Assembly: GCA_016182605.1 (NCBI GenBank)
Contig: JACPGE010000106.1
Span: 1-64,000, forward strand
Reading direction: 5' to 3'
Length of the DNA stretch: 64,000 nucleotides
Origin: Candidatus Hydrogenedentota bacterium
GTDB lineage: Bacteria; Hydrogenedentota; Hydrogenedentia; Hydrogenedentales; JAEUWI01
Part shown: piece by piece, positions 617 to 56,255 of the stretch
Layout: each line of letters starts with the position of its first letter
Numbering within the stretch: the stretch's first letter is position 1
Notes under the pieces: model-generated
Seen by the model: the letters and a program-made list of their open reading frames with translations, nothing else
Databases searched by the model: none
What the model was told of the DNA's origin: nothing
Made by a program: the position numbers and the translations under genes

Positions 617-643
617 TCAAAAGGAGTTCGGGCGTCCCGCCCG
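617..643. repeat. REP-like hairpin, left copy
   Basis: A 27-base element whose core CGGGCG-TCC-CGCCCG can fold into a 6-bp stem with a 3-base loop, with a side block AAAAGGAGTT. It is the inverted copy, with a single mismatch, of 1361-1387. The two copies bracket the tyrosine transposase, which is how RAYT genes are usually placed relative to their cognate REP elements. It starts one base after the stop codon of the preceding gene. Confidence 0.8.
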
Positions 644-686
644 CGATTCAAAGCTCCAACCCCCCTGCGCGAGATGCACAAGCTCC

Positions 687-28746: not shown

Positions 28747-29274
28747 ATGATTATGGCCGATGTTTTGAAGTTTCTCTTCCTGATTCTCGGGGCGCTGATT
28801 ATCACGGTGTCTTATTGGCTTCTCTTCGAGGCGATATTTCCCCGCTGGGTCCGCACGGCCTGCCGCATTTATCAGCAACGCCCCATCAAGACCTTTCTCC
28901 TCGGCGCATTGACCGGCGGTCCCGCCATTCTCATTACCGTCGCGCTGCTCAACCAGGGTGGTCCACAGGGTCAGTTCCTGGGCGCGAGCGCGGGCATCTT
29001 CCTGCTTCTTGTGAGTCTGGTAGGATCGGCGGGCCTGGCGCGGCTCGTGGGAGAAGGGCTGCCTAGCGCCATCGACGCGCAGCAATCCTGGCGGCCCGTG
29101 ATGCGCGGTGGCGCGGTGCTCTCCATCTGCTGTGTACTGCCCATTGCCGGCTGGTTTGCCATTTTACCCGTGATCCTGCTCAGTGGATTTGGCGCGGTGG
29201 TCCGCACCGCTTGGCAGATCCATCGCCAACGCCGCGCCGCGATTCATGAGGCCATGAAGGCGGTCGAAGCATGA
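28747..29274 (+). CDS. Hypothetical four-helix membrane protein
   Basis: A 175-residue protein with about four hydrophobic segments (near 8-28, 46-66, 78-98 and 125-150) and a basic tail. It is unassigned. The ATG at 28747 follows GGGGAG with 8-base spacing. Its stop codon overlaps the ATG of the DUF1800 gene (ATGA), so the two are tightly coupled and the membrane protein may anchor or accompany the DUF1800/DUF1501 pair. Confidence 0.75.
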   Translation: MIMADVLKFLFLILGALIITVSYWLLFEAIFPRWVRTACRIYQQRPIKTFLLGALTGGPAILITVALLNQGGPQGQFLGASAGIFLLLVSLVGSAGLARLVGEGLPSAIDAQQSWRPVMRGGAVLSICCVLPIAGWFAILPVILLSGFGAVVRTAWQIHRQRRAAIHEAMKAVEA

Positions 29275-30722
29275 AGTGGCCCCGCCGCAGATTCCTGCAA
29301 TCCGCGGGCAGCGTGGCCCTATTGGCCACCGCGGGGTGCGAGCTGCCCCAGGCACTGGGCGTGGTTGGCCCGGCCAAGGCGGCCCGGGGTCCCCTGACCG
29401 CGCCAGACGGGGATGAGGTGGATGAGATAGCGCATGTCCTGGGCCGCCTGAGCCATGGGCCGCGCCCCGGCGACTATCATCGCGTCCGGGAGATGGGTGT
29501 GGATGCCTATATTGAGGAGCAGCTTCACCCGGAAAGCATCGACGATGCCTGGGGCGACTATCGCGTGCGCCGCTTCGAGTCACTCCGTCAGCCTGTGGGG
29601 GAACTCTTCGAGTATCAAGAGCATCTGCTGCTCAAGGAACTGAGCGAGGCCACCGTCGTGCGGGCGGTGTACAGTGAGCGCCAATTGTATGAAGTGATGG
29701 CGGGTTTCTGGACCGACCATTTCAATATCGACAGTTCCAAGGGCGACTGCCCCTGGCTGAAGACCGCGGACGATCGCGAAGTGATCCGGCGCCATGCTCT
29801 GGGCCGCTTCTCCGATCTGTTGCGCGCCTCCGCGTTGAGCCCCGCCATGCTGTGGTACCTGGACGGACGCTCGAACCGGCGCAGCAGCCCTGACGAGCAG
29901 CCGAACGAAAACTACGCGCGCGAACTGCTGGAGTTGCACACGCTTGGCGTGCACGGCGGCTACACGCAAGCCGACATCATGGAGCTTGCGCGGTGTCTCA
30001 CCGGCTGGCACGTGCGCACGGAAGAGTTGTTCAAGAAGGGCAAGGTGGAGTTCAAGCCAGATGCGCACGATCAAGGCGAGAAGGCCGTGCTTGGGGAAGT
30101 CATACCCGCGGGTTTGGGCGAAGCGGATCTGGATCGTGTGCTCGCCATCGTGACACGCCACCCCGCCACGGCGAATTACGTCGCGGAGAAACTGTGCCGG
30201 AAGTTTATAGCCGATACGCCCCCGCCGGCCGCGGTGCGCGCGGTGGCCGATACCTTTCAGACGACCGAAGGCGGCATCCGCGCGACGTTGAAGACGCTGT
30301 TTGCGCACGAGGAATTCCGCGCGGCGCGGGGCGCCAAGATGAAACGGCCGCTCCACTACCTGGCCTCGGCATTGCGTGTTTCCGATGCCGATTCAAGCGT
30401 CGGCGAGCCTGTGATGGAGTACCTGCTGCGCATGGGCCATGCGCCATTCCAATACCCCACGCCCGACGGTTATCCCGACGAGGCAGGCCCCTGGATGGGC
30501 ACTTTGCTCTGGCGCTGGCACTTTGCGAAGGCGCTGGATGAAAACCGCCTGGGCGGCACGCAGGTGAACTGGGCCGCGTTGCGCGAGGCGGCAGGCGGTG
30601 ACGAAGTGTTCATGCGCCATGTGCTGGGCCGGCGTCCCCGGCCAGACGAAGCGCGCAGCTACCTCGCGTGCAACAACAGTCCCGCGGTGCTACTTGCGTC
30701 GCCGGCCTTCCAGAGGTATTGA
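29271..30722 (+). CDS. DUF1800 domain protein, twin-arginine lipoprotein-like signal
   Basis: A 483-residue member of DUF1800, a family of unknown function common in planctomycete-type genomes and normally followed by a DUF1501 protein. The conserved FWTDHFNI, NENYARELLELHTLGV and the terminal cysteine/asparagine region are present. The N-terminus MKWPRRRFLQSAGSVALL is a twin-arginine signal followed by a possible lipobox (ATAGC), so export of a folded protein is likely. It is preceded by a 4-base overlap and followed by the DUF1501 gene after a three-base gap. Confidence 0.9.
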   Translation: MKWPRRRFLQSAGSVALLATAGCELPQALGVVGPAKAARGPLTAPDGDEVDEIAHVLGRLSHGPRPGDYHRVREMGVDAYIEEQLHPESIDDAWGDYRVRRFESLRQPVGELFEYQEHLLLKELSEATVVRAVYSERQLYEVMAGFWTDHFNIDSSKGDCPWLKTADDREVIRRHALGRFSDLLRASALSPAMLWYLDGRSNRRSSPDEQPNENYARELLELHTLGVHGGYTQADIMELARCLTGWHVRTEELFKKGKVEFKPDAHDQGEKAVLGEVIPAGLGEADLDRVLAIVTRHPATANYVAEKLCRKFIADTPPPAAVRAVADTFQTTEGGIRATLKTLFAHEEFRAARGAKMKRPLHYLASALRVSDADSSVGEPVMEYLLRMGHAPFQYPTPDGYPDEAGPWMGTLLWRWHFAKALDENRLGGTQVNWAALREAAGGDEVFMRHVLGRRPRPDEARSYLACNNSPAVLLASPAFQRY

Positions 30723-30725
30723 GCC

Positions 30726-31847
30726 ATGGCCAGCAACGGATTTGTTCACGGCAACCCCGATCATCCGCACTGCCTCGTGGTGGTGTTTCTCCGGGGCGGT
30801 GCGGATGGTTTGAATATGATTGTGCCCGTGGAGGACGACGGTTACTACCGCCATCGCCCCACGATCAGTATCGGGAAGAAGAGCACCATGGCCCTGGATT
30901 CGCTCTTCGGGCTGAACTCTGAGCTGGGCGCGCTGTACCCCCTGTATCAGGAGGGCGATCTGGCCATCGTGCATGGAGTAGGTTCCGAAGACGAGACCCG
31001 CTCCCATTTCGAGGCCCAGGATCTCATGGAGCATGCGGGGCCGTCTGCCGGTGGTTGGCTTGGCCGTTACCTGCGTACGGCGCCGCGGGTCATCGGCGGG
31101 CCATTGGCCTCCATCTGTATTGGTGCGACCCAGCCAGAATCCCTGCGTGGCGCGCCCGCGTCCGTGGTGATGGAGTCCATCCAGACGCTTTCGCTCGGTG
31201 AAGGCGCCGAGGGATTCATGGACGGGCTCGCGGGCCTCTACCGTGCGGAAGAAGAGGGGATCGGCCGCGCCGGGCATTCCATGCTTACGGCGCTGCGCAA
31301 GATTACGGAATTGCAGCACACTCCCTATGTGCCGGCCGCCGGCGCCATCTATTCCGGCGATGATTTTGGCCACGGCATGCGCGAAGTGGCGCAACTGCTC
31401 AAGGCGCGTGTGGGTGTGGAGGCGGTGGCACTCGATCTGCACGGCTGGGATTCGCACATTGCTTCTTTCGCGTTGATGAATCCGCTCATGCGCAGTCTGG
31501 GCGATTCTCTCCGCGCTTTCCGCACGGATCTTGGCCCGCAGATGGCCCATACCACGGTGGTGGTGATGACCGAATTTGGCCGGCGCGTCTATGAGAACGC
31601 CTCTTTCGGTACCGACCATGGCCGCGGGAGTGCTATGATGGTGATGGGTGGCGGCGTGTGCGGGGGCCGGGTGCACCATGCCTGGAAACCGCTGGAGGAC
31701 GCCTATCTGGAGGGCCCCGGCGATGTGCCGGTGACCACCAACTACCGGGATGTGCTGGCCAGTGTTTTTTCACGGCATGGCGGACTGAGTTCGTTCGAGT
31801 CCGTTTTTCCGGGCTTTGCCGTGGCCCCTGTGGCATTGTATGGATAG
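30726..31847 (+). CDS. DUF1501 domain protein (sulfatase-like fold)
   Basis: A 373-residue protein of DUF1501, related to the alkaline-phosphatase/sulfatase superfamily. Key segments are VVVFLRGGADGLNMIVP, SHFEAQDLMEHAG, ALDLHGWDSH and VVMTEFGRRVYEN...GTDHGRGSAMMVMG. The histidines and aspartates in DLHGWDSH and TDHGRG are the likely metal ligands. There is no signal peptide of its own, so it may be exported with its DUF1800 partner (three-base spacing) or stay inside. Substrate and role are not established. Confidence 0.9.
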   Translation: MASNGFVHGNPDHPHCLVVVFLRGGADGLNMIVPVEDDGYYRHRPTISIGKKSTMALDSLFGLNSELGALYPLYQEGDLAIVHGVGSEDETRSHFEAQDLMEHAGPSAGGWLGRYLRTAPRVIGGPLASICIGATQPESLRGAPASVVMESIQTLSLGEGAEGFMDGLAGLYRAEEEGIGRAGHSMLTALRKITELQHTPYVPAAGAIYSGDDFGHGMREVAQLLKARVGVEAVALDLHGWDSHIASFALMNPLMRSLGDSLRAFRTDLGPQMAHTTVVVMTEFGRRVYENASFGTDHGRGSAMMVMGGGVCGGRVHHAWKPLEDAYLEGPGDVPVTTNYRDVLASVFSRHGGLSSFESVFPGFAVAPVALYG

Positions 31848-32001
31848 CGTTTTCATTGACGATAGCGGCTTCTTTGGGTGGCGCTTCCCGGCAGGTGTTC
31901 CGGGAGGCGCCGCCGCCGTTGTCCGCGTGTTCCGCTGGCAACAGGATGAAGCACCTGCCCTCACCCATGCCGCGCACGGCACAAAAGTGTACGATAGCGC
32001 C

Positions 32002-32556
32002 ATGGAGTTCGATGAGCAGGAGAGCCTGCGGCTTGCGTTGCAGGGTGATGGTGAGGCCTTCGCCTGTCTCGTGGACCATTACATGCCGCGCATATACTCG
32101 CATGTGTACCGCATGCTGCGCCGCCGAGAAGACGCCGAAGACGTAACGCAGGAGGCTTTTGTTCGCGCGTGGCGCTTTCTGCACCGTTACGACGCGGGGC
32201 GGCCCTTTCGAAACTGGCTGTATACGATCGCCTCCAACCTCGCGCTGAACCAGCTTCGCCTGCGGCAGCGGCGCGGCGATACGATCTCGATCGAAGAACC
32301 TGTCGAACTGCCCAGTGTGGAAGAGGCGGCCACGGCCCGGATAGCGCGCGGGGAACACCAGCGGCGGATCGATGCTGCGCTTGCGCAGCTTTCGCCCACG
32401 GCCGCGGCGCTGATACAGTTGCACTATCAAGAAGGACTCGCCATCCGGGAGGCGGCCGAAATATTGGGCATGAACGAAAACGCGGCGAAGGTGGCGTTGC
32501 ACCGGGCGCGAAAGGCGCTCCGGGAAATCCTCGTGGAGGAGGACAACCATGAATGA
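32002..32556 (+). CDS. ECF RNA polymerase sigma factor (RpoE-like)
   Basis: A 184-residue sigma-70-family factor of the extracytoplasmic-function type. Region 2 is clear (AFACLVDHYMPRIYSHVYRM, DVTQEAFVRAWRFLHRYD, RNWLYTIASNLALNQLR), and region 4 contains the helix-turn-helix (LIQLHYQEGLAIREAAEILG) and NAAKVALHRARKAL. It overlaps the next gene, a membrane anti-sigma candidate, by 8 bases, the normal arrangement for a factor released by an envelope signal. The ATG at 32002 was chosen because the upstream in-frame extension has no sigma-factor character; its ribosome-binding site is weak. Confidence 0.92.
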   Translation: MEFDEQESLRLALQGDGEAFACLVDHYMPRIYSHVYRMLRRREDAEDVTQEAFVRAWRFLHRYDAGRPFRNWLYTIASNLALNQLRLRQRRGDTISIEEPVELPSVEEAATARIARGEHQRRIDAALAQLSPTAAALIQLHYQEGLAIREAAEILGMNENAAKVALHRARKALREILVEEDNHE

Positions 32557-33181
32557 GCAAGCGATCATAGATTTGTTGCGGGCACGATTTGATATGGGCC
32601 AGCCCCTGCGCAGCGGCCTGGAGTCCGCGTTGCAGGCGCATCCGGGCTGCGAAGCCTATTGCCGCAGGTTGGAACGGCTCGAATCCCAGATGGGAAGCCT
32701 GCCCTGGATCGCGCCCGATCCGCATTTCACCGCCGCGGTGAAATCCCGCCTGCGCGCGGAGCCGATGCCGGCGGCGCCCCGGCCCGGTATGATGCTGGCC
32801 GCGGTGGCATGTTGCGTGCTGATAAGCGGGGTTGCGGGCTATCTCGCGAAGGATTACCTGCCCTATTCTGAGTTGGAGCGGCAGATCATGGCTTTTCACT
32901 GGAGTGATTTGACGCGCGAAAGCGGCGCGTTTCTGGAACCCACACCGCTCAGTTCGCTGCAAGGCGTGCCCTATGCGGCGGAGGCGGGCGACTGGCTCGA
33001 TCTGGAAGCGCTGCTCCTGCGCACGCGGGAGGCGCTTTCGAGCCTGCTCGGCCACTTCGATCCGGCGCCGCTGTATCTCTGGTCCGGGCTGGCGGCGGCG
33101 TGTGTGGGCATGCTTGGATTCAATGGCGCGCTGCTGCGCAGTGTCAATGGGAAAAACACCTGGGTGCAGTCCCGCCACTGA
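32549..33181 (+). CDS. Putative membrane anti-sigma factor
   Basis: A 210-residue protein overlapping the ECF sigma gene by 8 bases. The N-terminal cytoplasmic part contains a His-Cys-Cys group (HPGCEAYC, His31, Cys34, Cys38) close to the zinc-type anti-sigma pattern. A membrane segment follows (about 81-100, MMLAAVACCVLISGVAGYL), and a second hydrophobic stretch lies near 178-195. Sequestering the sigma factor until an envelope signal arrives is inferred from position and topology. It could alternatively be only a membrane partner. Confidence 0.72.
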   Translation: MNEQAIIDLLRARFDMGQPLRSGLESALQAHPGCEAYCRRLERLESQMGSLPWIAPDPHFTAAVKSRLRAEPMPAAPRPGMMLAAVACCVLISGVAGYLAKDYLPYSELERQIMAFHWSDLTRESGAFLEPTPLSSLQGVPYAAEAGDWLDLEALLLRTREALSSLLGHFDPAPLYLWSGLAAACVGMLGFNGALLRSVNGKNTWVQSRH

Positions 33182-33220
33182 GGGCGCGGACGTCAAGCAC
33201 CCTGGGCCGGGGTAAGAGGC

Positions 33221-33754
33221 ATGGACAAATTTGCGTATCTGGGCATGGGCATTACCGGCATGGCCGTGTTGTTGTTCGCCTACAAGGCGGCCACCATCGC
33301 GCTTGCCATCTGGTATGAACTGGCGTACCCCGGATTCTGTGCGCGCGTGCACGGCCTGTACACCGCGCGCAAACGGCTTTCCCTGGTGGTGGGGCTGGTG
33401 AATTCCATCTTCTTCTTCATCATTGTCGGCGTGCTGTTCAGCGTGGAAGGCGGCGGCCTCGCCATACCGGGATTCACCGTAATCGGGATTTATGCCGCGC
33501 TCTCCGTGGCGGCCTACGGCGCAGCGTACCGCGATCTGGGTCAGCGCCTCGACGCGGGAGAACTGGAGTTCGCCCCCGTACGCGCCCTGATTCGCGGAGG
33601 CATACTTGTGGAAATTGCCTTTCTCGTGCCCTTATACGGCCAGGCCATGTCGCTCTACACCCTCTTCCGCGGCCTCGGCGCGGTGATAATTGCCCTGCTC
33701 ACGCAGCGCCGCCATGCCCGCGCTGCCCGGAGCCTCGGGAGCCCGGAAGATTAG
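33221..33754 (+). CDS. Hypothetical membrane protein, 177 aa
   Basis: The protein has four hydrophobic segments (about 8-30, 57-76, 83-102 and 128-160) and a short basic tail. No family is recognised. The ATG at 33221 follows GGGGTAAGAGG-like sequence. It lies 39 bases after the anti-sigma gene, so it may belong to the same transcript as a target or accessory of the envelope-stress system. Confidence 0.65.
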   Translation: MDKFAYLGMGITGMAVLLFAYKAATIALAIWYELAYPGFCARVHGLYTARKRLSLVVGLVNSIFFFIIVGVLFSVEGGGLAIPGFTVIGIYAALSVAAYGAAYRDLGQRLDAGELEFAPVRALIRGGILVEIAFLVPLYGQAMSLYTLFRGLGAVIIALLTQRRHARAARSLGSPED

Positions 33755-33844
33755 GGTATATCGCGCGAAACGTGTGCCAGGGGCTCGCAGCGTGGGTCTG
33801 GAATGCTATAGAATATCCTTGGCAACTCCAGCAAGGCGCGTTCT

Positions 33845-35155
33845 ATGCTTCATTACCTCGAACTAAAACACACGGGGCCCTCAGAGCACATGCGGCTCGA
33901 CTTTGCCCCCCGGCTCAATATCCTCACCGGTGACAATGGCTTGGGCAAGACTTTCTTGCTTGATGTCGCCTGGTGGGCGTTGACACAGTCTTGGCCCGGC
34001 GAGATGGCTTGGCCTCGGCCTCGCGAGCGAGGGATTGCCGAAATAAACTACAGTTGCAGCACGAGTATTTCCAGTAAAGAGGCCACACTCGTTCGTGCTC
34101 AATTTGGCACAAAACTCGAGAAGTGGCTGAATCCCGCAGGAGCGAGCGTTGACGCTGGGCTACTTTTGTACATGCGGGTCGATGGCAGCTTTTCACTCTG
34201 GGATCCGGTTCGGAACATGCACGAGCCGGCGGATGCATCGAACCTGCCATCACACACGATGCGCCCGCCTGCGTTTCATTTCAGGAACGAAGAAATCTGG
34301 AATGGCCTGCGAAGCAATGGGAATGTGTTCTGCGAAGGACTACTGAGCGATTGGCGAAACTGGAAAATCTCCGATGGGCCCGAATTTCAACTCTTGCGTG
34401 AGGTATTGTTAAAACTCTCGCCCAGCGAGGCTGAAAAATTGGAGCCGGGCGATTTTCAGCGGCTTTCCATCAATGATGTTCGTGATATTCCGACAATCGT
34501 TTTTCCATATGGCCCGGTGCCCGTATCGCTCGCTTCTGCAGGTATGAAACGGATTATTTCCCTTGCTTATCTCATTACATGGATCCATACGGAACATCTC
34601 AATGCCTGCAACGCATTCGGGAAAGATTCAGCCCGGCAATTGACGATACTCATAGACGAAGTGGAAGCGCACCTCCATCCCCAGTGGCAAAGAGTCATTC
34701 TCCCATCGATGCTGAGCGTGGTTGAGGGCTTGGCCAATTCCCTGGCCCCTACCATTGCTACAAGGGCATATCCACAGATTCAGATCATCGCATCCACGCA
34801 CGCTCCCCTCGTGCTTGCGTCCATTGAGCCGGAGTTTGATGAAGCTCGAGACAGGGTTTTTCATTTTGGTGTTGAGCAGGGTGTGGTGCGGGTCGAGGAA
34901 TTGCCTTGGGCCAAGCAGGGCGATGCCGTGAATTGGCTCGTCTCCGAGACCTTCGGGCTGCGGCAAGCGCGGTCAAGAGAGGCGGAAACCGTCATTGAGG
35001 AAGCAGAGGCCTTCATGCGCAACGGGGCGAAGGATGCTACCACTTCACCGGATGTCCGGCGAGAGCGTGATGCCATTCATCAACGGTTAATGCAATACCT
35101 GCCCGATCACGATCCCTTCTGGCCACGATGGGTGGTCCAGACCGGTCAACGCTGA
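33845..35155 (+). CDS. SMC/ABC-type AAA ATPase of an ATPase-HNH module
   Basis: A 436-residue ATPase with an SMC/ABC-like head: Walker A TGDNGLGKT (Lys35), an LSGGQ-equivalent SLASAGMKR (228-236), Walker B LTILIDEVEAHLHP (Asp271, Glu272) and the H-loop ASTHAPLVL (His320). There is no long coiled coil and no TOPRIM domain, so it is closer to PtuA-type or AAA_21 ATPases than to OLD nucleases. It overlaps the next gene by one base (TGATG). Two 60-base lines counted by hand (34441 and 34561) are 47-50% GC against 68% in a nearby housekeeping line, suggesting horizontal acquisition. A weak -10-like TATAGAAT lies at 33807. Confidence 0.85.
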   Translation: MLHYLELKHTGPSEHMRLDFAPRLNILTGDNGLGKTFLLDVAWWALTQSWPGEMAWPRPRERGIAEINYSCSTSISSKEATLVRAQFGTKLEKWLNPAGASVDAGLLLYMRVDGSFSLWDPVRNMHEPADASNLPSHTMRPPAFHFRNEEIWNGLRSNGNVFCEGLLSDWRNWKISDGPEFQLLREVLLKLSPSEAEKLEPGDFQRLSINDVRDIPTIVFPYGPVPVSLASAGMKRIISLAYLITWIHTEHLNACNAFGKDSARQLTILIDEVEAHLHPQWQRVILPSMLSVVEGLANSLAPTIATRAYPQIQIIASTHAPLVLASIEPEFDEARDRVFHFGVEQGVVRVEELPWAKQGDAVNWLVSETFGLRQARSREAETVIEEAEAFMRNGAKDATTSPDVRRERDAIHQRLMQYLPDHDPFWPRWVVQTGQR

Positions 35156-35742
35156 TGATTTGCGTGGAGAAGGTGTCCGAGCCGGAGCAATTCGATGTGG
35201 AGGTGAGGAAGAAAGGCGGTGTTTGGCTGGCGGATCATCCCACGGGCCGGGTTCCACCGTATTGGCGGCCCTTCCTGCCCGCTCTCTCGAAAGGGTTCAA
35301 GCAATTGTGCGGCTATTCGGCGATGTATACGCCCAGCGGCACCGTGGATCATTACGTCGACATCAAGGAGCGCCGGGAGCTTGCCTACGAATGGGACAAC
35401 TATCGTTTCGCTTCTGAACTTCTCAATAGCATGAAGGGCTGCAAAGGCAAGGACGGATCCAAGGTTTTCGATCCGTATGAAGTGAACGACGGGTGGTTTG
35501 AGATCATACTTCCTTCGCTTCAACTGATCGTGACCGATTCGGTGCCCCCGGAATTGCGCGAACAGGCCATGTACACGCTCGAACGCCTTCATCTGCGGGA
35601 CGACGAACGCATCATACGGCAGCGGCGCCATTGGATCGAGGAGTACAAGAATTCGGGCGATATAGGCGTCTTGGAACGCAACGCCCCGCTTCTTGCGCGT
35701 GCTGTCACGAAGCGGCTTCTGGCGGGGCAGCCGATAGTCTGA
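35155..35742 (+). CDS. HNH-like nuclease candidate, partner of the ATPase
   Basis: A 195-residue protein translationally coupled to the ATPase gene (stop and start share one base). A betabeta-alpha/HNH-like pattern is visible: LCGYSAMYTPSGTVDHYV with Asp65-His66, then EWDNYRF (Asn82) and LNSMKG (Asn91, Lys94). The metal-binding and general-base positions of HNH nucleases are thus plausible, but the paired zinc cysteines of most HNH proteins are missing (one Cys at 52). The second half is helical (LREQAMYTLERLHLRDDE) and unassigned. With the ATPase it looks like a defence module; by similarity alone it could also be a non-nuclease partner. Confidence 0.7.
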   Translation: MICVEKVSEPEQFDVEVRKKGGVWLADHPTGRVPPYWRPFLPALSKGFKQLCGYSAMYTPSGTVDHYVDIKERRELAYEWDNYRFASELLNSMKGCKGKDGSKVFDPYEVNDGWFEIILPSLQLIVTDSVPPELREQAMYTLERLHLRDDERIIRQRRHWIEEYKNSGDIGVLERNAPLLARAVTKRLLAGQPIV

Positions 35743-35795
35743 TTCTTACTTGTCGAAACTCGCCGAATCGGCCTGCATTGCTCTTGCCCTGCCGA

Positions 35796-35830
35796 AAATA
35801 AAAAACCCTTCAATCGTGGGGACTGAAGGG
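35796..35830 (-). terminator. Intrinsic terminator of the LysM/M23 peptidase gene
   Basis: On the minus strand CCCTTCA and TGAAGGG form a 7-bp stem around an 11-base loop and are followed by TTTTTTATTTT. It lies about 57 bases beyond the stop codon of the minus-strand peptidase gene and faces the end of the HNH-like gene. Confidence 0.88.
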
Positions 35831-35886
35831 CTGCCCGTCCGTGGGCGTATGGGTATCGCTCCAGGAGAAGTGGAGGATGCTGCCGG

Positions 35887-37002
35887 TTATTGTTCGTGCA
35901 GGTGGGGGTGTGCGCTTTCCTGAGTGAGATGGGTCATGGGATTCACGGCCTGGCCGTGCTGGCGGATCTCCAAGTGGAGGTGGGGGCCGGTGGAGCGCCC
36001 GGAGGAACCCACGTCTCCGAGGATCGTTTCTTTGGTGACCACGTCGCCCGTCTTCACATGATTCACGTCGTTGTGGGCATAGACGGATTCCAGGCCGTTG
36101 CCGTGTTCCACCACCACCACGCGGCCATAGCCGGTTTGCCAACCGCTGAATGTTACGCGGCCCGATTCAATGGGGTAGATGGGAGAACCCGTTTCCGTGG
36201 CGAGATCGATACCATCATGGAAACTCGCATGCCCGGAAAATGGATCCTTGCGCATGCCGAAACCCGAGGTGAGCCGTGCATCGCCACCAACGGCAGACTC
36301 CCAGGGCGCCCGCACCGGATCCGTGGTTGTTATTGCGCGGCCGTCCATCACTTCCCGAATCAGGCCGGTAATCGTCGAGAGGTGCCCTGGCACTTCCCGA
36401 ATCATTTCCAGGGCGCGTTCGGCGGTGAGACTCAGTTCGGGCCCCCCAATCGCGGTGGCGGCGGGCGCCGGCTTTTCCACAGGGGGTTCTGCGTTCTTGA
36501 TGCCCGGCGCGTCCAGTTTCTTAACTTCGACTTGGTCTTCCAGTATGTTGAATACCGGCGAGACCATCTCACTGGGCGGCTCGAAAGCCTTCGACAGGGA
36601 GAGAGGCGGCGCCAGCGGGGTCATGTCGAGAGAAGGCGCCGAGGACGGCAAAGCCAACGGCGCCGATGATGAGGAGAGCACCGAAAGATCGAGTTGCTGT
36701 CCGGGATGAATCATGTCTGGATCGGAAAGCCGGTTTGCGCGTGCCACCCGGTCCACCCCCGCGTAGATTTCCGTCAGGGAAGGATTGTGGCCCCGGCCAA
36801 GCAGGTGTTCGCGTACGATGCGGGAGAGGTTATCTCCCGCTTGTACGGTGTGTGTGGCCGAAGGCGGCGCCGTTTGAGGCGTGGCCAATTGGGAGGAGAG
36901 CACGGCCTGATGAAGATTGCGAAAGTGGGGGGTGACGCTGACTGTGGCCCGGCTCTGTGGCGTTGCGCTTTGGCTGAGGTTCGTGGTGACCTGAATATAC
37001 AT
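35887..37002 (-). CDS. LysM and M23 metallopeptidase domain protein
   Basis: This 371-residue protein has a LysM peptidoglycan-binding domain at about 51-107 (THTVQAGDNLSRIV, IHPGQQL), a proline-rich linker and a C-terminal lysostaphin-like M23 zinc peptidase. The metal ligands are in HDGID (His262, Asp266) and HLH (His341, His343), followed by LEIRQHGQAVNP. It should cleave or remodel peptidoglycan cross-links. No classical signal peptide follows the ATG at 37002, so export may be non-canonical; a longer upstream frame does not help. It is transcribed alone or after the next membrane protein gene and ends at a strong terminator. Confidence 0.88.
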   Translation of the reverse strand: MYIQVTTNLSQSATPQSRATVSVTPHFRNLHQAVLSSQLATPQTAPPSATHTVQAGDNLSRIVREHLLGRGHNPSLTEIYAGVDRVARANRLSDPDMIHPGQQLDLSVLSSSSAPLALPSSAPSLDMTPLAPPLSLSKAFEPPSEMVSPVFNILEDQVEVKKLDAPGIKNAEPPVEKPAPAATAIGGPELSLTAERALEMIREVPGHLSTITGLIREVMDGRAITTTDPVRAPWESAVGGDARLTSGFGMRKDPFSGHASFHDGIDLATETGSPIYPIESGRVTFSGWQTGYGRVVVVEHGNGLESVYAHNDVNHVKTGDVVTKETILGDVGSSGRSTGPHLHLEIRQHGQAVNPMTHLTQESAHPHLHEQ

Positions 37003-37153
37003 CACGCGGATCCCTGCGGGCGCCGTCTGCGGCCCAATTCCTGCCTGTGAAGGCGAATACGTTGCCTGAAGACAGAGCAAGGGATGTGCCACAGTGGTGT
37101 TCTTGTCTAAGCCATTGAAAACAGGGAAGTTAAGAGGCTGGCGCGGGGCGGAT

Positions 37154-37660
37154 CTAGGGGGAGGGCGGCAGAAGCTGCCGATCGGAAGGCGGATTCTGCC
37201 CACCTTGCCGGCGCAGATCGGGCGCGTCTTTCATGGTGAAGGACAGCACGCTCCAGCCCTGCCGGGTCTTTCCACGAAGCGTCGCGAGATAGCTTTGCCG
37301 ATCCATGTGTCCGCCGGGCCGCTCCAGATCCAGCTCGCCCCGGAATTCGATGTACTCCCCCTTCAACGCATGGCTCGAATCCCGGAAATAGACCATCTTG
37401 ATCTCCGGACCGGGCAACGCCTTCGTGACGTGCTCCCGGAGGGCAAGATAGGCATCGGCACGGATGAGCTCTTGCGCGTAAGTGGCGGCGCGGGCCCGGC
37501 CCGCCTGAAGCGGGCTCAGTAGCGATTCGGGCAGTTGGGTATCGCGCATGAAGAGGTACAACACACCGCACGCGGCCAGCACGATGAGTCCGCCGAAGAA
37601 GATCATCTTGCGTTGAAACTCGAGTCGATCGGGGCTCGGCGGGATTCCGTGTCGGGCCAT
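37154..37660 (-). CDS. Hypothetical single-pass membrane protein, 168 aa
   Basis: A membrane anchor lies near residues 19-38 (KMIFFGGLIVLAACGVLYLF), with a basic N-terminus inside and about 130 residues outside that mix helices and strands. It is unassigned. The ATG at 37660 was chosen over one 27 bases upstream, because the upstream one falls inside the dispersed repeat element. Its stop lies 152 bases before the M23 peptidase start. A cell-envelope role is suggested only by the neighbours. Confidence 0.7.
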   Translation of the reverse strand: MARHGIPPSPDRLEFQRKMIFFGGLIVLAACGVLYLFMRDTQLPESLLSPLQAGRARAATYAQELIRADAYLALREHVTKALPGPEIKMVYFRDSSHALKGEYIEFRGELDLERPGGHMDRQSYLATLRGKTRQGWSVLSFTMKDAPDLRRQGGQNPPSDRQLLPPSP

Positions 37661-37680
37661 GGTGTGATTCCAGAGACTAA

Positions 37681-37890
37681 CCCGCATATTTCACCACTTC
37701 AAGCCCACTTGTCAACGAGCACGGATTGGAGGGTGGTGAAATATGCTCAGCGTGACGATGGTGCTGGCGTTCACCGGGCAGGATAAATCACAGGCTGTCT
37801 GGCGATACCGCAGCGCATGCCGTGGCAATTGCGGATCTGAGAGGGTGTTATGAATCGAACGTGCGAAGCCCGTGATTTATCCGAACTAAG
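37681..37890. repeat. Dispersed palindromic element, copy B
   Basis: This element is strongly similar to 15044-15252 along its whole length. It starts CCCGCATATTTCACCACTTC, and the best block runs from GGTGAAATATGCTCAGCGTGA through GGCGATACCGC with few mismatches. GCATATTTCACCAC pairs with GTGGTGAAATATGC over 14 bp. It ends with GCCCGTGATTTATCC like copy A, but the left-hand direct repeat is missing. The MurJ-like gene's stop codon lies within its last bases, so the element was inserted close to two genes without breaking either. Confidence 0.85.
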
Positions 37891-39373
37891 GGCGATTCCC
37901 GGGAGCAATGCGCTCCGTCAACCGGTAGCATAGTATGAGGAGCGCCAGCGATGCGAATGCGTGGATGGGCAGCAGCATTGCCGCCGGCAGTGCGGGCGCG
38001 TGGGGCGCACCCAGTCTCCACAGGAAGTGCGCGCATGCCAATGCAAGTGTTGGCAACGCAATCCGCCAGGACGCGTGCAGCCACCGGGACAGTGCGATGC
38101 GGGACTCCGCGCGCCCATGGATCAGCCAGAAGGCAAAGGCCGCGCCCAGTGTGGTGGATGCCGCAAAGGCCAGACTGATGCCAAGCAAGTCGAAGCCCGG
38201 TATGAGTAGCAGACACAGTAGTGGCAGCGTAATGCAGCGAAGCACCATCACGGCGAGATAGGCGCTGTGGCGCTGCTGGGCAAAGAGGCAGCGGCAGGCG
38301 AGCGCTTCCAGCAGCCAGCCGGGCAGCGCGAGGGCATGCCCCACGATCACGTGGGCGGTGCGCTCCGCCGCCACGCCATCAAACGCGCCATACTGCAGCA
38401 CGGCCCGAATGAGTTCCACGCGCATCAACACCAGCCAGAGCGCGAGCGGTACGGTGGCCCGGAGCAGGATGGCCGCCGTCCGCTCCAGAGAATGCAGGAG
38501 GCGGCTGCGATCGCCGTTGTGCACCATGGCCGCCGCCAGAGGGAACCAGGCGCTCATGAGGATGAGATCCACCACGCCCACGGGAATCTGGATCAGGCTG
38601 TAGCTGAAGTTCATGCAGGAAAGCGCGCCACTTCCCAGGTAGCCCGCAGCCGCCACCATGAAGAGCGCAAGAAACTGTTGCAGCGAGTTGACGCCGAGCA
38701 GGGGCGCTGAAGCACCGAGCAGTTGCCGGCCTCCCGGGATGGAGAGGCTTCCTGGCCACACACGCAGATCGGCCCGCGCGAAAATAGCCTGAACGGCGAG
38801 CAGGAGCCCCCCGCTCACGGGCAGGGCGATCGCGAGCGGCCGGTAATCCGTGCCCTGCGCTGCAAGCAGGAGGGCCGCGGCAAGTGTGGCGCCGATCACG
38901 AGTCCATCGAGCGCGGCGAGTACGTAGCGTTGCTGTGCCGCGTTGACGGCCTTCAGCACCGAAGCGGGGAAGAAGAAGAGCACGGCAATGGCCATCCAGC
39001 GCAGGAGTTCCGCGGCGCCGGCGCGCGATTCCAGGGAGGCGCCCTGGCCCAACAGCGCGACAATCCAGGGCGCCGTGGCAAACAGGGCGCTTCCGGCCAA
39101 TGCGCCTGCCAGGAGCATCCAGCCCGCCACAATCAACACGTTGGTGCGGGCACGGCGCTCATGTTGATAGAAGGGCAGGAACGCGTTGTAGACGAGACTG
39201 TCCACGATGAGATAGAGGCCAATGGGCGCGCTCTTGGCCAGGAGATAGGCGTCGGTCCCGGTATTCGCGCCAAAGCGGTAGGCCAGCAGCAGGCCCGCAA
39301 GCACCTGAATGACCTTGGAAAATATGCCCACCGCACCAAGTATAAGTGCGGGCCGCAGCAGGGCGCTGTTCAC
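37886..39373 (-). CDS. MurJ/Wzx-like lipid flippase (MVF family)
   Basis: A 495-residue protein of about 13-14 membrane helices in the MurJ (MVF) family. The N-terminal pattern ILGAVGIFSKVIQVLAGLLLAYRFGAN and the later FNFSYSLIQIPVGVV-like motif (here MNFSYSLIQIPVGVVDLILM) are typical. By context it flips a lipid-linked sugar precursor of the exopolysaccharide rather than lipid II. The GTG at 39373 overlaps the stop of the O-antigen-ligase gene (GTGA), which fixes the start. Expected partners (ligase, tyrosine kinase) are in the same operon. Confidence 0.85.
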   Translation of the reverse strand: MNSALLRPALILGAVGIFSKVIQVLAGLLLAYRFGANTGTDAYLLAKSAPIGLYLIVDSLVYNAFLPFYQHERRARTNVLIVAGWMLLAGALAGSALFATAPWIVALLGQGASLESRAGAAELLRWMAIAVLFFFPASVLKAVNAAQQRYVLAALDGLVIGATLAAALLLAAQGTDYRPLAIALPVSGGLLLAVQAIFARADLRVWPGSLSIPGGRQLLGASAPLLGVNSLQQFLALFMVAAAGYLGSGALSCMNFSYSLIQIPVGVVDLILMSAWFPLAAAMVHNGDRSRLLHSLERTAAILLRATVPLALWLVLMRVELIRAVLQYGAFDGVAAERTAHVIVGHALALPGWLLEALACRCLFAQQRHSAYLAVMVLRCITLPLLCLLLIPGFDLLGISLAFAASTTLGAAFAFWLIHGRAESRIALSRWLHASWRIALPTLALACAHFLWRLGAPHAPALPAAMLLPIHAFASLALLILCYRLTERIAPGNRP

Positions 39374-40782
39374 GGCGTCCCGCCGCAGGACCGCTGCCCC
39401 TGCCGTGCAAGGATGAGCCCCACAATCCAGGTGAAGGGCACCGCGATAATTGTGATGAAGAAGGCCACCGAAGCAATGCTGTGCACGCCCATGCCCACTG
39501 TGGCCGCGATAGCGCCGTGTTGCAGCAAGCGCGCATCGGGAGCCGCGCCGCTTGCGGGCCGCAATGCGCGCAGCAACGTGGACAAGAGGCAAAGAAATGC
39601 AAGGAGCCCTGCCAGGCCGCACTCGGCCAGCAACTGAAAATACTGGCTGTCATAGTAAGAGCGGTGCCGCGCCGCGAGTCCGAGGCCGAGAAGCGGATAA
39701 TCCCGAAATGCAAGCAGCGCCGTCTTCCATGCAACCATCCGATCGTGAAAGGAGGAGCCTGGCCGGCTCAGGCGGAAGAAGATATCGTCTCCCCAGAGCA
39801 GCAGGAGCAGCGCCGCGCATAACAGCATGGGGGCGCGCAAGCGCGGCAGCCACAGCCACGCGTAGGTTGCGGCCACGGCGAGCAGCGCAGCGAAACCGGT
39901 TTTCGAGCCGGTGCCATCCAAGGCCCATACGGAGGCGATCGCCGTAAGCAGGCCCAGCGCAAACCAGCGTTGCATCCGCATCAGCGCGATGCCGATAGCC
40001 GCGCCGAAGACGAACGAACCGGCGAAGTGGTTCGCGGCGCCGTCGACCCAGCCGCGCTCGAAGGTGCGGTACGCGCCCGCGGGTAGATCCTCGAGGGGAT
40101 AGATCGACTCGGATATGCCACAGCACGCCGCTGCGATGACGGGCAGCAGCCACGCATAGAGCGCGGAATCATCGAGGCTGGGCGCCAGCGTATGGGCGAG
40201 GATGAGCACCAGCGCAACATAATACAGGTTGGCGAGGTAGAGCAGTGGCCCTGCGGCGTGCAGGAGTGTGCCTTGCGCCAAACCGGCCAACGCGGAAAGG
40301 GTGACGGCGCAGAGAAAAAGGAGGAGCGCGCGGTGAAATGGCGCGGGCCGCAATGCGTGGCGGTGGGGCGTGTTTCGATGCGGTTGGCCCCACGTGGCGC
40401 GGAGCACGGCCAATAACATGCCGGCGCACGCGAGATGATCCAGACGGAGGTAGAGCAGTTCATCGCCCAGAGGGCTAAGCGCGATTCGCGGGGTGAAGAT
40501 CGCCATCGCAGGCAGGAACAGCAGCCCGAAGTGGGGCGCGGCGCAGCCGATCGCGTACAACATGAATCCCACAAGAAGCAGCGGATTCTCGGTCCTGTAT
40601 GCCAGTGCCAGCAGGGCAATGGCGCCGGCGCACATCAAAAGGGGCATCAGCGGATCGCGGCACAGGCGCGCGGGCAACAACGCACCTGTAATGGCATCGC
40701 TGCACGCCGCAGGTGCGGACCAGATGCGGGCAATCAGCGATGCGTCCAGCAGCCCTCCCGAGCCTGTGCCGCCGGGGTTCAT
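39370..40782 (-). CDS. O-antigen ligase/polymerase family membrane protein
   Basis: A 470-residue polytopic protein (about 11-13 helices) with the large extracytoplasmic loop of the Wzy_C/O-antigen-ligase family. The segment PGSSFHDRMVAWKTALLAFRD with PLLGLG is characteristic, containing the Arg and the following His-rich loop (GLAARHRSYYDSQYFQLLAECG). It probably joins or polymerises polysaccharide outside the membrane. The ATG overlaps the stop of the upstream gene (ATGA), and its own stop overlaps the flippase start (GTGA), so the operon is tightly coupled. Confidence 0.86.
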   Translation of the reverse strand: MNPGGTGSGGLLDASLIARIWSAPAACSDAITGALLPARLCRDPLMPLLMCAGAIALLALAYRTENPLLLVGFMLYAIGCAAPHFGLLFLPAMAIFTPRIALSPLGDELLYLRLDHLACAGMLLAVLRATWGQPHRNTPHRHALRPAPFHRALLLFLCAVTLSALAGLAQGTLLHAAGPLLYLANLYYVALVLILAHTLAPSLDDSALYAWLLPVIAAACCGISESIYPLEDLPAGAYRTFERGWVDGAANHFAGSFVFGAAIGIALMRMQRWFALGLLTAIASVWALDGTGSKTGFAALLAVAATYAWLWLPRLRAPMLLCAALLLLLWGDDIFFRLSRPGSSFHDRMVAWKTALLAFRDYPLLGLGLAARHRSYYDSQYFQLLAECGLAGLLAFLCLLSTLLRALRPASGAAPDARLLQHGAIAATVGMGVHSIASVAFFITIIAVPFTWIVGLILARQGQRSCGGTP

Positions 40783-52535: not shown

Positions 52536-52839
52536 AGGCAAGCTCCTTTCGGTCGAATCTTTCAGCGGGGGAGCATCTTCCATGCCAACGCCATGTACCG
52601 GATCGCAGGCTTGACTTAAGTTCAAGGAACCCAATACACTTACGCGCAAAAAAGCCCCTAAAAGCGGCTGAAAAACCGGCTGGCAACCGCGCAACACCGG
52701 CAGATTCTGCCGGATCCCCGGTAGAAAGTCCCGGGCATTCCTAGGAGCAATCCCCAGAAAGCAGGCATTTTGGCAGTTTTCGCAGATTAATTTGCGGAAT
52801 AGTTGACAATTTTTGGACATCCCGACGGAGTTTCCGCCA
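52536..52839. other. Intergenic region with a GC-rich palindrome
   Basis: This 304-base region lies between the small zinc protein gene and the ABC operon. It contains a perfect palindrome CCGGCAG-ATT-CTGCCGG at 52697-52713 (7-bp stem, 3-base loop), which could be an operator or a short hairpin. TTGACA at 52803-52808 has no matching -10 box at normal spacing. No gene was recognised. Confidence 0.6.
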
Positions 52840-53760
52840 GTGATTGAAGCCCTTAAGCTCACCAAGTTCTACGGCGCTGTGGCCGCCATCCAGGATGTCT
52901 CATTCACGGTCGGGGCTGGCGAGATCATTGGCTTTCTCGGGCCGAACGGGGCAGGCAAAAGCACGACCATGCGCATTCTCACGGGCTTTTCGCCGGCAAC
53001 GCGGGGCACGGCACGGGTGGCGGGCTTCGACGTGCACGAAGACCCGATCGAGGTGAAGCGCCGGGTCGGGTATCTGCCCGAACGGGTGCCGCTCTATGAA
53101 GAGATGAGCGTGGACGCCTTTTTGCGGTATGTGGCGGAGATCAAAGGGGTCTCCCGGAGCATGCGGCGCGCGGCGGTGGGCGAGGCGATGGAGCGTTGCG
53201 GCGTGTCGCAGATGGGCGGCCGCCTGATAGGCCACCTCTCGAAGGGCTACCGCCAACGCGTGGGACTCGCGCAGGCCTTGCTGGGGAAGCCCGAAGTGCT
53301 CGTGCTGGATGAGCCCACCGTGGGCCTCGATCCGCGGCAGATCGTGGACATCCGCCATATGATCAAGAATCTGGCGGGGGATCACACGGTATTGATCAGC
53401 ACCCACATCCTGCCGGAGGTGGCCATGCTGTGCCGCCGCGCGGTGATTATCAATCAGGGGCGTGTGGCGGTGGAGGCCGATTTGGCGACGCTGACGGAGG
53501 GCGCCAGGGAATTTCACGTGACCGTGCGGGGCGACGCGGGGAAGGCGGAGCAAGTATTGCTCGGTGTTGCCGGTGTGAAATCGGCAACACTGGACGCCAC
53601 GGGCCAATGGCTGGTGCAGGGTACGAACGTGGACGGGGAAGCGGTCAACGCGGCGCTCGTGAACGCGGGTCTGGGGGTGAGCGCATTGGAGCACCGGCGC
53701 AAATCGCTGGAGGAAGTCTTCATGGAAGTGGTGTCACGCGAGCGGGAGGCCGTCGTATGA
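52840..53760 (+). CDS. ABC transporter ATP-binding protein (GldA-like)
   Basis: A 306-residue ATPase of the GldA/NosF type: VIEALKLTKFYGAVAAIQDV, Walker A GPNGAGKST (Lys40), signature LSKGYRQRVGLAQALLG, Walker B VLVLDEPTVGLDP (Asp157, Glu158) and the H-loop STHILPE. It powers the transporter encoded by the next genes. The GTG at 52840 follows CGGAG; a TTG 27 bases upstream is less likely. Its stop overlaps the permease ATG (ATGA). In gliding bacteria the equivalent set is GldA-GldF-GldG; here a motility role is only a possibility. Confidence 0.9.
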   Translation: MIEALKLTKFYGAVAAIQDVSFTVGAGEIIGFLGPNGAGKSTTMRILTGFSPATRGTARVAGFDVHEDPIEVKRRVGYLPERVPLYEEMSVDAFLRYVAEIKGVSRSMRRAAVGEAMERCGVSQMGGRLIGHLSKGYRQRVGLAQALLGKPEVLVLDEPTVGLDPRQIVDIRHMIKNLAGDHTVLISTHILPEVAMLCRRAVIINQGRVAVEADLATLTEGAREFHVTVRGDAGKAEQVLLGVAGVKSATLDATGQWLVQGTNVDGEAVNAALVNAGLGVSALEHRRKSLEEVFMEVVSREREAVV

Positions 53761-54587
53761 ACAACACCTGGGCCGTTTGCAAGCGCGAATTTGCGAGTTA
53801 TTTTCTCACGCCGGTGGGCTATGTGGTCGTGGGCATGGTGGCGCTGATCTCTGGCCTGTCGTTTGCCATGTCGTTCCTGACCCATGTGGACATCACGCAA
53901 TCGCCGACCACGTTTGCCTATTCGACGGTGCCCGATTTCGAGGAAAGCCTCCTCAGCCCCTTTCTGGTTTTCTGCGGCATGCTGATCATGTTTCTGTCGC
54001 CGCTGATTACCATGCGCCTGCTGGCGGAAGAACGGCACCGCGGCACCATCGAGTTATTGCTCACTCATCCCCTGCGCGATCGCGAGATTGTGTTCGGCAA
54101 GTACTTTGCCGCGCTGGGCATGCTGCTGGTCATGATGCTCATCGTCAGTGTGCATCTGATGGTGGTGGGGTATTTCGTGGATGTGGAACCGGCGGTGCTC
54201 GTCTTCGGGGTGCTCACGGTGTTTCTCATGGGGGCGGCCTTTATCAGTCTTGGCCTGTTTATCTCCTCCATATCCCGCAACCAGATCACCGCGGGCACGC
54301 TCACGTTCGGTCTGCTATTGCTGTTGTTCATCGTGGGGAATGCCGGCGAGAAACTGCCGGAGATTAGCCCGATGCCGGAGACCTATCCGGCGATGCTGAG
54401 GGCGCCCTTCGGCTTCGTCTATGCCACCTTCCGCACCTTTGTTATGGAACTGCTGGTGGATGCCCACGCCAAAGACATGGCCCAAGGCATTTTCCAGCCC
54501 CACGACGTGCTCTACTACGTGCTGTTCAGCGCGTTCTTTCTGTTCTTAACCTTTCGCGCGCTCGAGAGCCGGAATTGGCGGGGATAA
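53757..54587 (+). CDS. ABC transporter permease (GldF-like)
   Basis: A 276-residue ABC-2-type permease with about six membrane segments, starting WAVCKREFASYFLTPVGYVVV and containing the family stretch MRLLAEERHRGTIELLLTHPL, then REIVFGKYFAALG. It overlaps the ATPase gene by 4 bases and is followed after three bases by the Gldg-family gene. It probably forms the membrane pore of an exporter or a mechanical complex. The exported molecule is unknown. Confidence 0.9.
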   Translation: MNNTWAVCKREFASYFLTPVGYVVVGMVALISGLSFAMSFLTHVDITQSPTTFAYSTVPDFEESLLSPFLVFCGMLIMFLSPLITMRLLAEERHRGTIELLLTHPLRDREIVFGKYFAALGMLLVMMLIVSVHLMVVGYFVDVEPAVLVFGVLTVFLMGAAFISLGLFISSISRNQITAGTLTFGLLLLLFIVGNAGEKLPEISPMPETYPAMLRAPFGFVYATFRTFVMELLVDAHAKDMAQGIFQPHDVLYYVLFSAFFLFLTFRALESRNWRG

Positions 54588-54590
54588 TCG

Positions 54591-56255
54591 ATGCAGTATC
54601 GCCATTGGACAGGATTCGCGGCGCTGGGCTGTTTTACCGGCGCCATGAATCTGCTCGTGTGGAAACAGGATCTCTTCGCCCTGCCCGTGTTGGCGCTCCT
54701 GGCGCCGGCGCTGCTTGGCGGCATCCTGTGGATGGCGCTCGTCGTCTATGATCGCACGGTGCGGCACGGCGCGGACGGCCGCGCCTCCGGCAGTCTGGGC
54801 GCGGTGCTTTCCTCGGCGCTGTTTCTCGCCATCTGCATGGTGGTTTACGGCATCGTGAAATCGTGGGGGCTCTCCTGGGACCTGACGGAGGAGGGGCGCC
54901 GCGATCTCGCGGAGCAGACGGTGCAGGTGCTGCAATCGATGACGCAAGAGGTGACGGTGTACGGCGTGTTCTTGCAGATCGACGATGAACTGGTGGCCAT
55001 CGCGAAAGAGAAGACGGAGCGCTTCCTGGAGCAGTGCCAGGACTACACGGATCTGCTCAAGGTGGAGTGGATCGATCCGCAGACGGGAGTGGAGCGGCTG
55101 AACGCCATGGGCGTAACGCATGCCTCTACCCAGGGCACCATCGTCGTAAAGGCGGGCAGCAATCAGCGCATCATCACCCTGGGTGGCGGGAGCCCGCGCA
55201 TGGAAGAGCGCGATTTCACCAACTGCCTCATCAATGTGCTGCGCAATGTGAAGCCCAAGGTCTGTTTTCTTACCGGCCACAAAGAACGCGACATCACCGA
55301 TGACGATGAACAGAACGGCGGATCGATGCTGGGCAACATGCTGGTGGGCGAGTCCTATGCGGTGGAGCGTTTCGGCATCAAGATCAGCGCGCCGGAGGTG
55401 CCCGCCGATTGCAGTGTGCTCGTCATCAACAATCCCGAGTCCGACTTGCACAGCCAGGAGATCAAGGCTATAGACGAATACCTCGAACGGGGCGGACGCT
55501 TGCTGCTGTTGCTGGATCCCTGGCGCAAGGTGGATCCGGGCTTTGGCCAGGGGGAGCAAATGCGCCCCTGGCTCCGGGAGCGCTTCGGTATCGAGATTGG
55601 AAGCGACATCCTCATCAGCGATGCGCGCGAGCCGGTGTGGCAGGTGGAAATGCGCATCGACGATCCGGCATTTGACGCCGTGGAAGACGCGGAGCTCTTC
55701 CGCGGCCCCTTCAGCAGCAGCCACCCGATTGCCCGGAGCTTCGATCAGACCCTGATGTTCCAGGCGGTGCGCTCCGTGGAACGCGCCGAAAAGACGCCCG
55801 ACAATGTGGTGACGGACGTGCTGCTGCGCACCCCGCCCGATTTCTGGCAGGAGCAGGACGTGGTGCGGCTGGCGGAGACCGGCAAAGCCACGAAAGATGT
55901 GGCGGAAGAGACCGGCCCCCACATGATCGCGATGGCGGCGGTGCGGCGGACGGCAACGGTGGACAACGGACGGCCCGTGGACGCCCGGATCGTCGTGGTG
56001 GGCGATTCCGATTTTGCGAAGAACGGACAAATTGCCACCATTCGCGGGCATTTCAATCTGCTGCTCAACACCTTTGCGTGGTTGAGCGAGCGCGAAGATC
56101 TGATCGGCATCCGCGCCAACAGCAAGGAAGACGCGCCGATCATCCTCTCCGCCGGAGAAGAAAAGGCCGTGGCGTGGGTGAGTGCGCTGTTCACAGTCCA
56201 GGTGGTGGTACTTGCCGGTCTGGCCGCCTACCTCTGGCGGAGGAAGAATGCATGA
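54591..56255 (+). CDS. Gldg family protein (ABC transporter accessory, GldG-like)
   Basis: A 554-residue protein with N-terminal membrane helices (about 10-30, 35-52 and 72-92), a soluble extracytoplasmic domain with an ABC-type uncharacterised-transport (DUF4350/IFT52-like) fold (VCFLTGHKERDITDDDEQNG, VLVINNPESDLHSQEIKAID, YLERGGRLLLLLDPW) and a C-terminal membrane helix. GldG-like proteins pair with the GldA/GldF ATPase and permease. The stop codon overlaps the start of the DUF4340 gene (ATGA). The substrate remains unknown. Confidence 0.88.
   Translation: MQYRHWTGFAALGCFTGAMNLLVWKQDLFALPVLALLAPALLGGILWMALVVYDRTVRHGADGRASGSLGAVLSSALFLAICMVVYGIVKSWGLSWDLTEEGRRDLAEQTVQVLQSMTQEVTVYGVFLQIDDELVAIAKEKTERFLEQCQDYTDLLKVEWIDPQTGVERLNAMGVTHASTQGTIVVKAGSNQRIITLGGGSPRMEERDFTNCLINVLRNVKPKVCFLTGHKERDITDDDEQNGGSMLGNMLVGESYAVERFGIKISAPEVPADCSVLVINNPESDLHSQEIKAIDEYLERGGRLLLLLDPWRKVDPGFGQGEQMRPWLRERFGIEIGSDILISDAREPVWQVEMRIDDPAFDAVEDAELFRGPFSSSHPIARSFDQTLMFQAVRSVERAEKTPDNVVTDVLLRTPPDFWQEQDVVRLAETGKATKDVAEETGPHMIAMAAVRRTATVDNGRPVDARIVVVGDSDFAKNGQIATIRGHFNLLLNTFAWLSEREDLIGIRANSKEDAPIILSAGEEKAVAWVSALFTVQVVVLAGLAAYLWRRKNA

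What the first reader, a model, noticed from the sequence alone, without database searches (positions are those of the whole stretch)
33845..35742. ATPase-HNH two-gene module with low GC, Septu-like but distinct
An SMC/ABC-type ATPase (Walker A at 29-36, Walker B at 266-272, H-loop His320) is coupled by a one-base stop/start overlap to a 195-residue protein with an HNH-like DH...N...N pattern. The unit is about 47-50% GC in two hand-counted lines, lies between ordinary genes and ends opposite a strong minus-strand terminator. ATPase+HNH pairs are a known antiphage design (Septu PtuA/PtuB, retron-linked versions), but the second protein lacks the usual zinc cysteine pairs and has an unassigned helical half, so it may be a new variant. 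The defence role is inference.
Basis: partly seen in the sequence, partly recalled or inferred. Interest (0 to 1): 0.72.

Follow-up and report, generated by a model that had tools for sequence, protein, structure and literature searches.

The report
Septu antiphage pair, zinc-less PtuB branch
The two genes are a stand-alone Septu (PtuA ATPase plus PtuB nuclease) antiphage system from a widespread branch already covered by defence-gene databases, whose nuclease lost most of the cysteines usual in this family; the module is ordinary, although relatives in Microcoleus look fused to a restriction-modification system.

Summary
In detail: ptuA (33845-35155) and ptuB (35155-35742) overlap by one base (stop/start), with an ABC/SMC-type ATPase and an HNH nuclease. 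It is not a new kind of system. PADLOC's Septu models match both proteins full length (PtuA E=1.9e-159, PtuB E=8e-62). AlphaFold models match solved PtuA and PtuB above everything else in the PDB. No retron RNA or RT lies beside it, so it is Septu type I. The 'unassigned helical half' is part of the PtuB fold. Relatives lie in many phyla, next to BREX and Dnd-type genes, on plasmids and on viral contigs. Most likely the ATPase gates the HNH nuclease, which destroys nucleic acid on infection; target and trigger are untested. The most interesting thing lies outside the window: in five Microcoleus-group loci this branch's PtuA is fused to a restriction-enzyme DNA-recognition domain and follows a C5-DNA methyltransferase, hinting that this branch cuts DNA. 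New member of a known kind.

The parts
33845..35155 (+). ptuA: 436-aa ABC/SMC-type ATPase (AAA_21/AAA_15), Septu PtuA
   Evidence: PADLOC PDLC00307 E=1.9e-159 over 1-435; Pfam AAA_21 E=3e-14; model pLDDT 87.7, best PDB fold matches E. coli Septu PtuA 8eea
33929..33952 (+). Walker A GDNGLGKT, residues 29-36 of PtuA
   Evidence: G29, N31, G34, K35 invariant in 46 aligned relatives
34529..34543 (+). ABC signature-like LASAG, residues 229-233
   Evidence: S231 invariant in 82 of 82
34640..34660 (+). Walker B LTILIDE, residues 266-272, followed by HLHPQWQR
   Evidence: D271, E272, H276, H278, P279, W281, Q282, R283 invariant
34799..34801 (+). H-loop/switch His319
   Evidence: invariant in 82 of 82
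35155..35742 (+). ptuB: 195-aa HNH nuclease, Septu PtuB, zinc-less branch; start overlaps ptuA stop by one base
   Evidence: PADLOC PDLC00348 E=8e-62 over 1-188; model pLDDT 95.6, the ten best PDB matches are all PtuB
35308..35310 (+). Cys52, the only invariant cysteine
   Evidence: 63 of 63 relatives
35347..35352 (+). Asp65-His66, presumed metal ligand and general base of the HNH site
   Evidence: H66 63/63; D65 is D in 56 and E in 7; on beta strand 62-66 of the model
35398..35400 (+). Asn82 of YEWDNYR, the N of HNH
   Evidence: 63 of 63
35425..35427 (+). Asn91 (third HNH position), on helix 88-95
   Evidence: 63 of 63
35804..35832 (-). terminator-like hairpin of the convergent M23 peptidase gene (35887-37203, -), just outside the module
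   Evidence: 12 pairs then T tract; -17.1 kcal/mol, z=-2.75

Best explanation
A stand-alone Septu (type I) antiphage system. PtuA, an SMC/ABC-type ATPase, assembles with PtuB, an HNH nuclease, and holds it in check while ATP is plentiful. An infection cue changes the nucleotide state or assembly of PtuA, and PtuB then cuts nucleic acid through Asp65/His66/Asn82/Asn91, stopping phage growth. In this branch the HNH core is held together without the usual zinc cysteine pairs. I think phage DNA is the likelier substrate for this branch (about 60:40 over host tRNA). Shown here: sequence family, fold, conserved catalytic residues, conserved pairing, defence-gene and mobile neighbourhoods of relatives. 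Inferred from characterised relatives: ATP gating, oligomer, abortive or restrictive outcome. Not known: trigger and target.
For: Both proteins match PADLOC Septu type I models at full length. The PtuB model's ten best PDB matches are PtuB chains of retron Ec78/Eco7, retron Ec83, another retron I-A complex and E. coli Septu. The PtuA model's best matches are E. coli Septu PtuA. ATPase motifs and H66/N82/N91/K94 are invariant. ptuA-ptuB adjacency, often a 1- or 4-base overlap, is kept in about 80 loci of many phyla. Among genes within two positions of relatives are BrxL in three separate loci, PglX, PglZ, C5 methylases and a DndD/PbeC-like gene. Relatives sit on plasmids and on IMG/VR contigs. 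No retron RNA, and none of the flanking genes checked with Pfam (29271-39622) is a reverse transcriptase. DNA target: in Microcoleus-group relatives PtuA carries a restriction-enzyme DNA-recognition domain and follows a C5 DNA methyltransferase. Mutating Walker or HNH residues of a related Septu abolishes defence (PMC13096335).
Against: No experiment on this pair. Identity to solved PtuB is only about 14-15%. Related PtuAB complexes cut either DNA (E. coli Septu, as cited in PMC11555353 and PMC12198126) or tRNA-Tyr (retron-Eco7, PMC11555353; Septu EcB88, PMC13096335), so the target cannot be read off the family. In the window itself no other defence gene was found within 64 kb.
Confidence: 0.85

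Rival explanations
1. Same Septu architecture, but PtuB is a tRNA-cutting (abortive) nuclease, as in retron-Eco7 and Septu EcB88, and phage DNA is not touched.
For: PtuAB of retron-Eco7 depletes tRNA-Tyr (PMC11555353); a retron-free Septu from E. [quoted passage not shown] The same fold family is used here.
Against: In relatives of this branch PtuA is fused to a sequence-specific DNA-binding domain and coupled to a DNA methyltransferase, which makes most sense if DNA is cut.
Confidence: 0.35
2. The pair is the effector part of a type I-A retron whose RT and msr-msd were missed.
For: The same PtuA/PtuB effectors are used by retrons; solved retron PtuAB are among the best structural matches.
Against: No Rfam match in 24000-46000. 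The checked flanking genes are DUF1800, DUF1501, sigma factor, three without a Pfam match, M23 peptidase and MurJ; none is an RT. NCBIfam retron-Ec78 PtuA/PtuB models score far below their cut-offs (53 against 500 bits, 14 against 150).
Confidence: 0.03
3. A housekeeping ATPase-nuclease pair for DNA repair, not defence.
For: PtuA resembles Rad50/SMC/RecF-like ATPases; some relatives lie between ordinary genes, as here.
Against: Patchy: full-length matches in about 4 of some 67 genomes of the order; low GC for the region; on plasmids and viral contigs; next to BREX and methylases.
Confidence: 0.05

Closest known systems
Septu type I (PtuA1/PtuB1; PADLOC PDLC00307 and PDLC00348)
   Same: Both proteins, order, overlap, no RT; full-length profile matches; same fold
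   Different: Belongs to a sub-branch whose PtuB has no zinc cysteine pairs; Pfam has no model for this PtuB and NCBIfam's PtuB model does not reach its cut-off; public plasmid records call the PtuB relatives 'hypothetical protein'
E. coli Septu PtuAB (PDB 8ee4, 8ee7, 8eea)
   Same: Fold of both proteins; its PtuB also reads CCYS, not CxxC, at the first cysteine pair in the part aligned
   Different: 14-17% identity by structure; longer PtuA (465 aa)
Retron I-A PtuAB (Ec78/Eco7, Ec83)
   Same: PtuA/PtuB fold and HNH position
   Different: Those need RT and msDNA; PtuA 540-550 aa; the retron-type PtuBs aligned through this part (9n69, 22bv) read CAYC at the first cysteine pair; no RT or msr RNA found here
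AriA/AriB (PARIS)
   Same: ABC ATPase of the AAA_21/AAA_15 kind
   Different: Partner is not an HNH protein (general knowledge); much weaker match

Membership tests
Septu type I | PtuA: ABC/SMC-type ATPase matching PtuA models | tested here: met
   PDLC00307 E=1.9e-159, 1-435 of 436 aa; fold matches 8eea
Septu type I | PtuB: HNH nuclease matching PtuB models | tested here: met
   PDLC00348 E=8e-62, 1-188 of 195 aa; ten best PDB fold matches are PtuB; H66/N82/N91 invariant
Septu type I | Adjacent genes in one operon | tested here: met
   one-base overlap here; adjacency in about 80 relatives
Septu type I | No reverse transcriptase (else type II, a retron) | tested here: met
Septu type I | Confers phage defence that depends on both catalytic sites | not testable with these tools
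   needs a bench test
Septu type I | PtuA-PtuB complex | not tested
   no complex prediction was available
Type I-A retron | RT gene and msr-msd RNA beside ptuAB | tested here: not met
   no Rfam match; no RT among the flanking genes checked
TIGR02646-type zinc HNH | Two cysteine pairs around the HNH core | tested here: not met
   only Cys52 is kept across 63 relatives; other PtuBs keep CxxC...CxxC

The most novel reading that the evidence does not exclude
This zinc-less branch of PtuAB is a DNA-cutting module that can be given sequence specificity. In Microcoleus it serves as the nuclease arm of a restriction-modification system (C5 methyltransferase, NgoAVII-type B3 recognition domain fused to PtuA, then PtuB), and the copy in the window is the stand-alone form that senses something other than methylation.
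Probability: 0.35. Interest if true: 0.6.

Novelty: new member of a known kind. Interest (0 to 1): 0.3.

Why it matters
It settles an unannotated pair as Septu and shows that a widespread branch of PtuB keeps the catalytic residues without the cysteine scaffold. The branch also bears on an open question: whether Septu nucleases cut DNA or tRNA. Relatives fused to a DNA-recognition domain and paired with a DNA methyltransferase give a direct, testable prediction that this branch cuts DNA.

Tried and rejected
Retron origin: no RT or msr nearby. Insertion-site comparison with relatives: the M23 peptidase neighbour has homologues, but the flanks are not syntenic, so no empty site could be shown. 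A first scan of viral contigs with PtuB alone found nothing; an alignment of PtuA did. A 45-residue piece of E. coli PtuB found nothing in plasmids, and it could not be searched from an Aeromonas centre. The paper on the E. coli PtuAB structure is not held. A weak mad3/AriA hit at 52813-53757 is an ordinary ABC transporter ATPase. No matched control set was run for the neighbourhood scan. L005 (E=4e-4) looks like a chance overlap with a different ATPase gene.

Full report
What is there. The window holds two genes in one operon: 33845-35155 (436 aa) and 35155-35742 (195 aa), sharing one base. The family's conserved start Met coincides with ATG 35155. A minus-strand terminator-like hairpin follows and belongs to the convergent M23 peptidase gene. 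No sigma-70-like promoter was found in front of ptuA, which says little for this organism.

Identity. Pfam gives only a general ATPase for the first protein and nothing for the second. PADLOC gives PtuA (E=1.9e-159) and PtuB (E=8e-62), both full length. NCBIfam's retron-Ec78 PtuA and PtuB models match far below their cut-offs. A profile of 46 PtuB relatives finds only solved PtuB chains up to E=0.1, then weak chance hits. A PtuA profile finds solved PtuA chains first. AlphaFold models (pLDDT 95.6 and 87.7) compared with the PDB give PtuB chains as the ten best for the nuclease and E. coli Septu PtuA as the best for the ATPase.

Active sites. In 63 PtuB relatives His66, Asn82, Asn91 and Lys94 do not vary and residue 65 is Asp or Glu. 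The model places His66 at the end of one strand, Asn82 before a second strand and Asn91 on the following helix (strand 62-66, strand 83-87, helix 88-95), the order expected of a beta-beta-alpha metal site. The His-to-Asn and Asn-to-Asn spacings of 16 and 9 resemble those of the HNH domain of Cas9, which also lacks zinc cysteines (from general knowledge).

Missing cysteines. Other PtuB proteins from the searched genomes read CxxC ... EHFxPK ... WxNLxxxCxxCN, with some variation. This branch reads CxYS ... VDHY ... YEWxNYRxAxxxxNSxK, with only Cys52 invariant. E. coli Septu PtuB also reads CCYS at the first pair in the aligned part, so a partial loss is not unique to this branch.

Distribution. 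ptuA and ptuB are adjacent in nearly all loci, in Chlorobiota, Cyanobacteriota, Planctomycetota, Pseudomonadota, Myxococcota, Acidobacteriota and others. Within the window's order full-length matches occur in about 4 of some 67 genomes, and the window's PtuA clusters with the two from its own order that were in the tree, so transfer within the order and old inheritance with loss are both possible. Plasmid copies and viral-contig copies show mobility. BrxL lies within two genes of the pair in three unrelated loci, and PglX, PglZ, C5 methylases and DndD/PbeC occur too. Many other neighbours are ordinary genes, and no matched control was run. The window itself holds no other defence gene that these libraries detect.

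How it works. Septu in E. coli is reported as a PtuA hexamer with two PtuB that degrades phage DNA (Li et al. 2024, as cited in PMC12198126 and PMC12948488). Retron-Eco7 PtuAB depletes tRNA-Tyr (PMC11555353), and a retron-free Septu cuts the tRNA-Tyr variable loop, with Walker and HNH mutants inactive (PMC13096335). The gate-and-nuclease plan therefore carries over with good confidence; the target does not.

A lead from relatives. In five Oscillatoriales/Microcoleus loci (L012, L014, L025, L034, L035) PtuA of this branch carries an extra N-terminal domain matching the C-terminal B3-like DNA-binding domain of NgoFVII/NgoAVII-type restriction enzymes (Pfam E=1.6e-29; PDB 4rd5 E=1.6e-34; PADLOC REase_II E=1.5e-38 to the recognition part only). 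A C5-cytosine DNA methyltransferase lies just upstream (about 20 bases in L012). Two further loci (L017, L020) have the methyltransferase without the domain. PtuB follows at once, with the catalytic residues intact in the members that could be read in full. This looks like a restriction-modification system whose nuclease has been replaced by PtuAB. No paper in the library holds both 'Septu' and 'NgoFVII'. It is the best hint here that this branch cuts DNA. It does not show that the stand-alone copy in the window does so.

Verdict. Observation confirmed; interpretation partly supported; a new member of a known kind, Septu type I, in a zinc-less sub-branch. Interest is low to moderate for the window pair itself and higher for the Microcoleus fusion.

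Noticed in passing
L012:8031-11481, L014:3669-7095, L025, L034, L035 (Oscillatoriales/Microcoleus): C5-DNA methyltransferase, then PtuA fused N-terminally to an NgoFVII/NgoAVII-type B3 DNA-recognition domain, then PtuB: a possible restriction-modification system with a Septu nuclease. L017 and L020 have the methyltransferase but no B3 domain.
   Followed up: partly
L044:2805-3258, L048:7716-8169, L055:11246-11699, L077:11246-11861 (Nostocales): A 454-616 bp insert between ptuA and ptuB; in L048 its ORF matches the 23S rRNA intervening-sequence protein family (PF05635). L044 and L055 hold near-identical ORFs, L077 only a shortened one.
   Followed up: partly
L124-L131 (IMG/VR contigs): Eight viral or proviral contigs carry a PtuA of this branch, five of them with a recognisable PtuB as well.
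   Followed up: partly
window 52813-56255: ABC transporter ATPase, permease and auxiliary protein in a row (ABC_transp_aux type); the ATPase gives weak hits to defence ATPase models but is ordinary.
   Followed up: yes
window 468-1307: Y1_Tnp (IS200-like) transposase-domain gene near the left edge of the window.
   Followed up: no
PtuA C-terminus, window 35111-35131: The PtuA tail DPFWPRW (D423, F425, R428, W429 invariant in the branch) is strongly conserved with no known role; it may be a contact to PtuB or to another PtuA.
   Followed up: no
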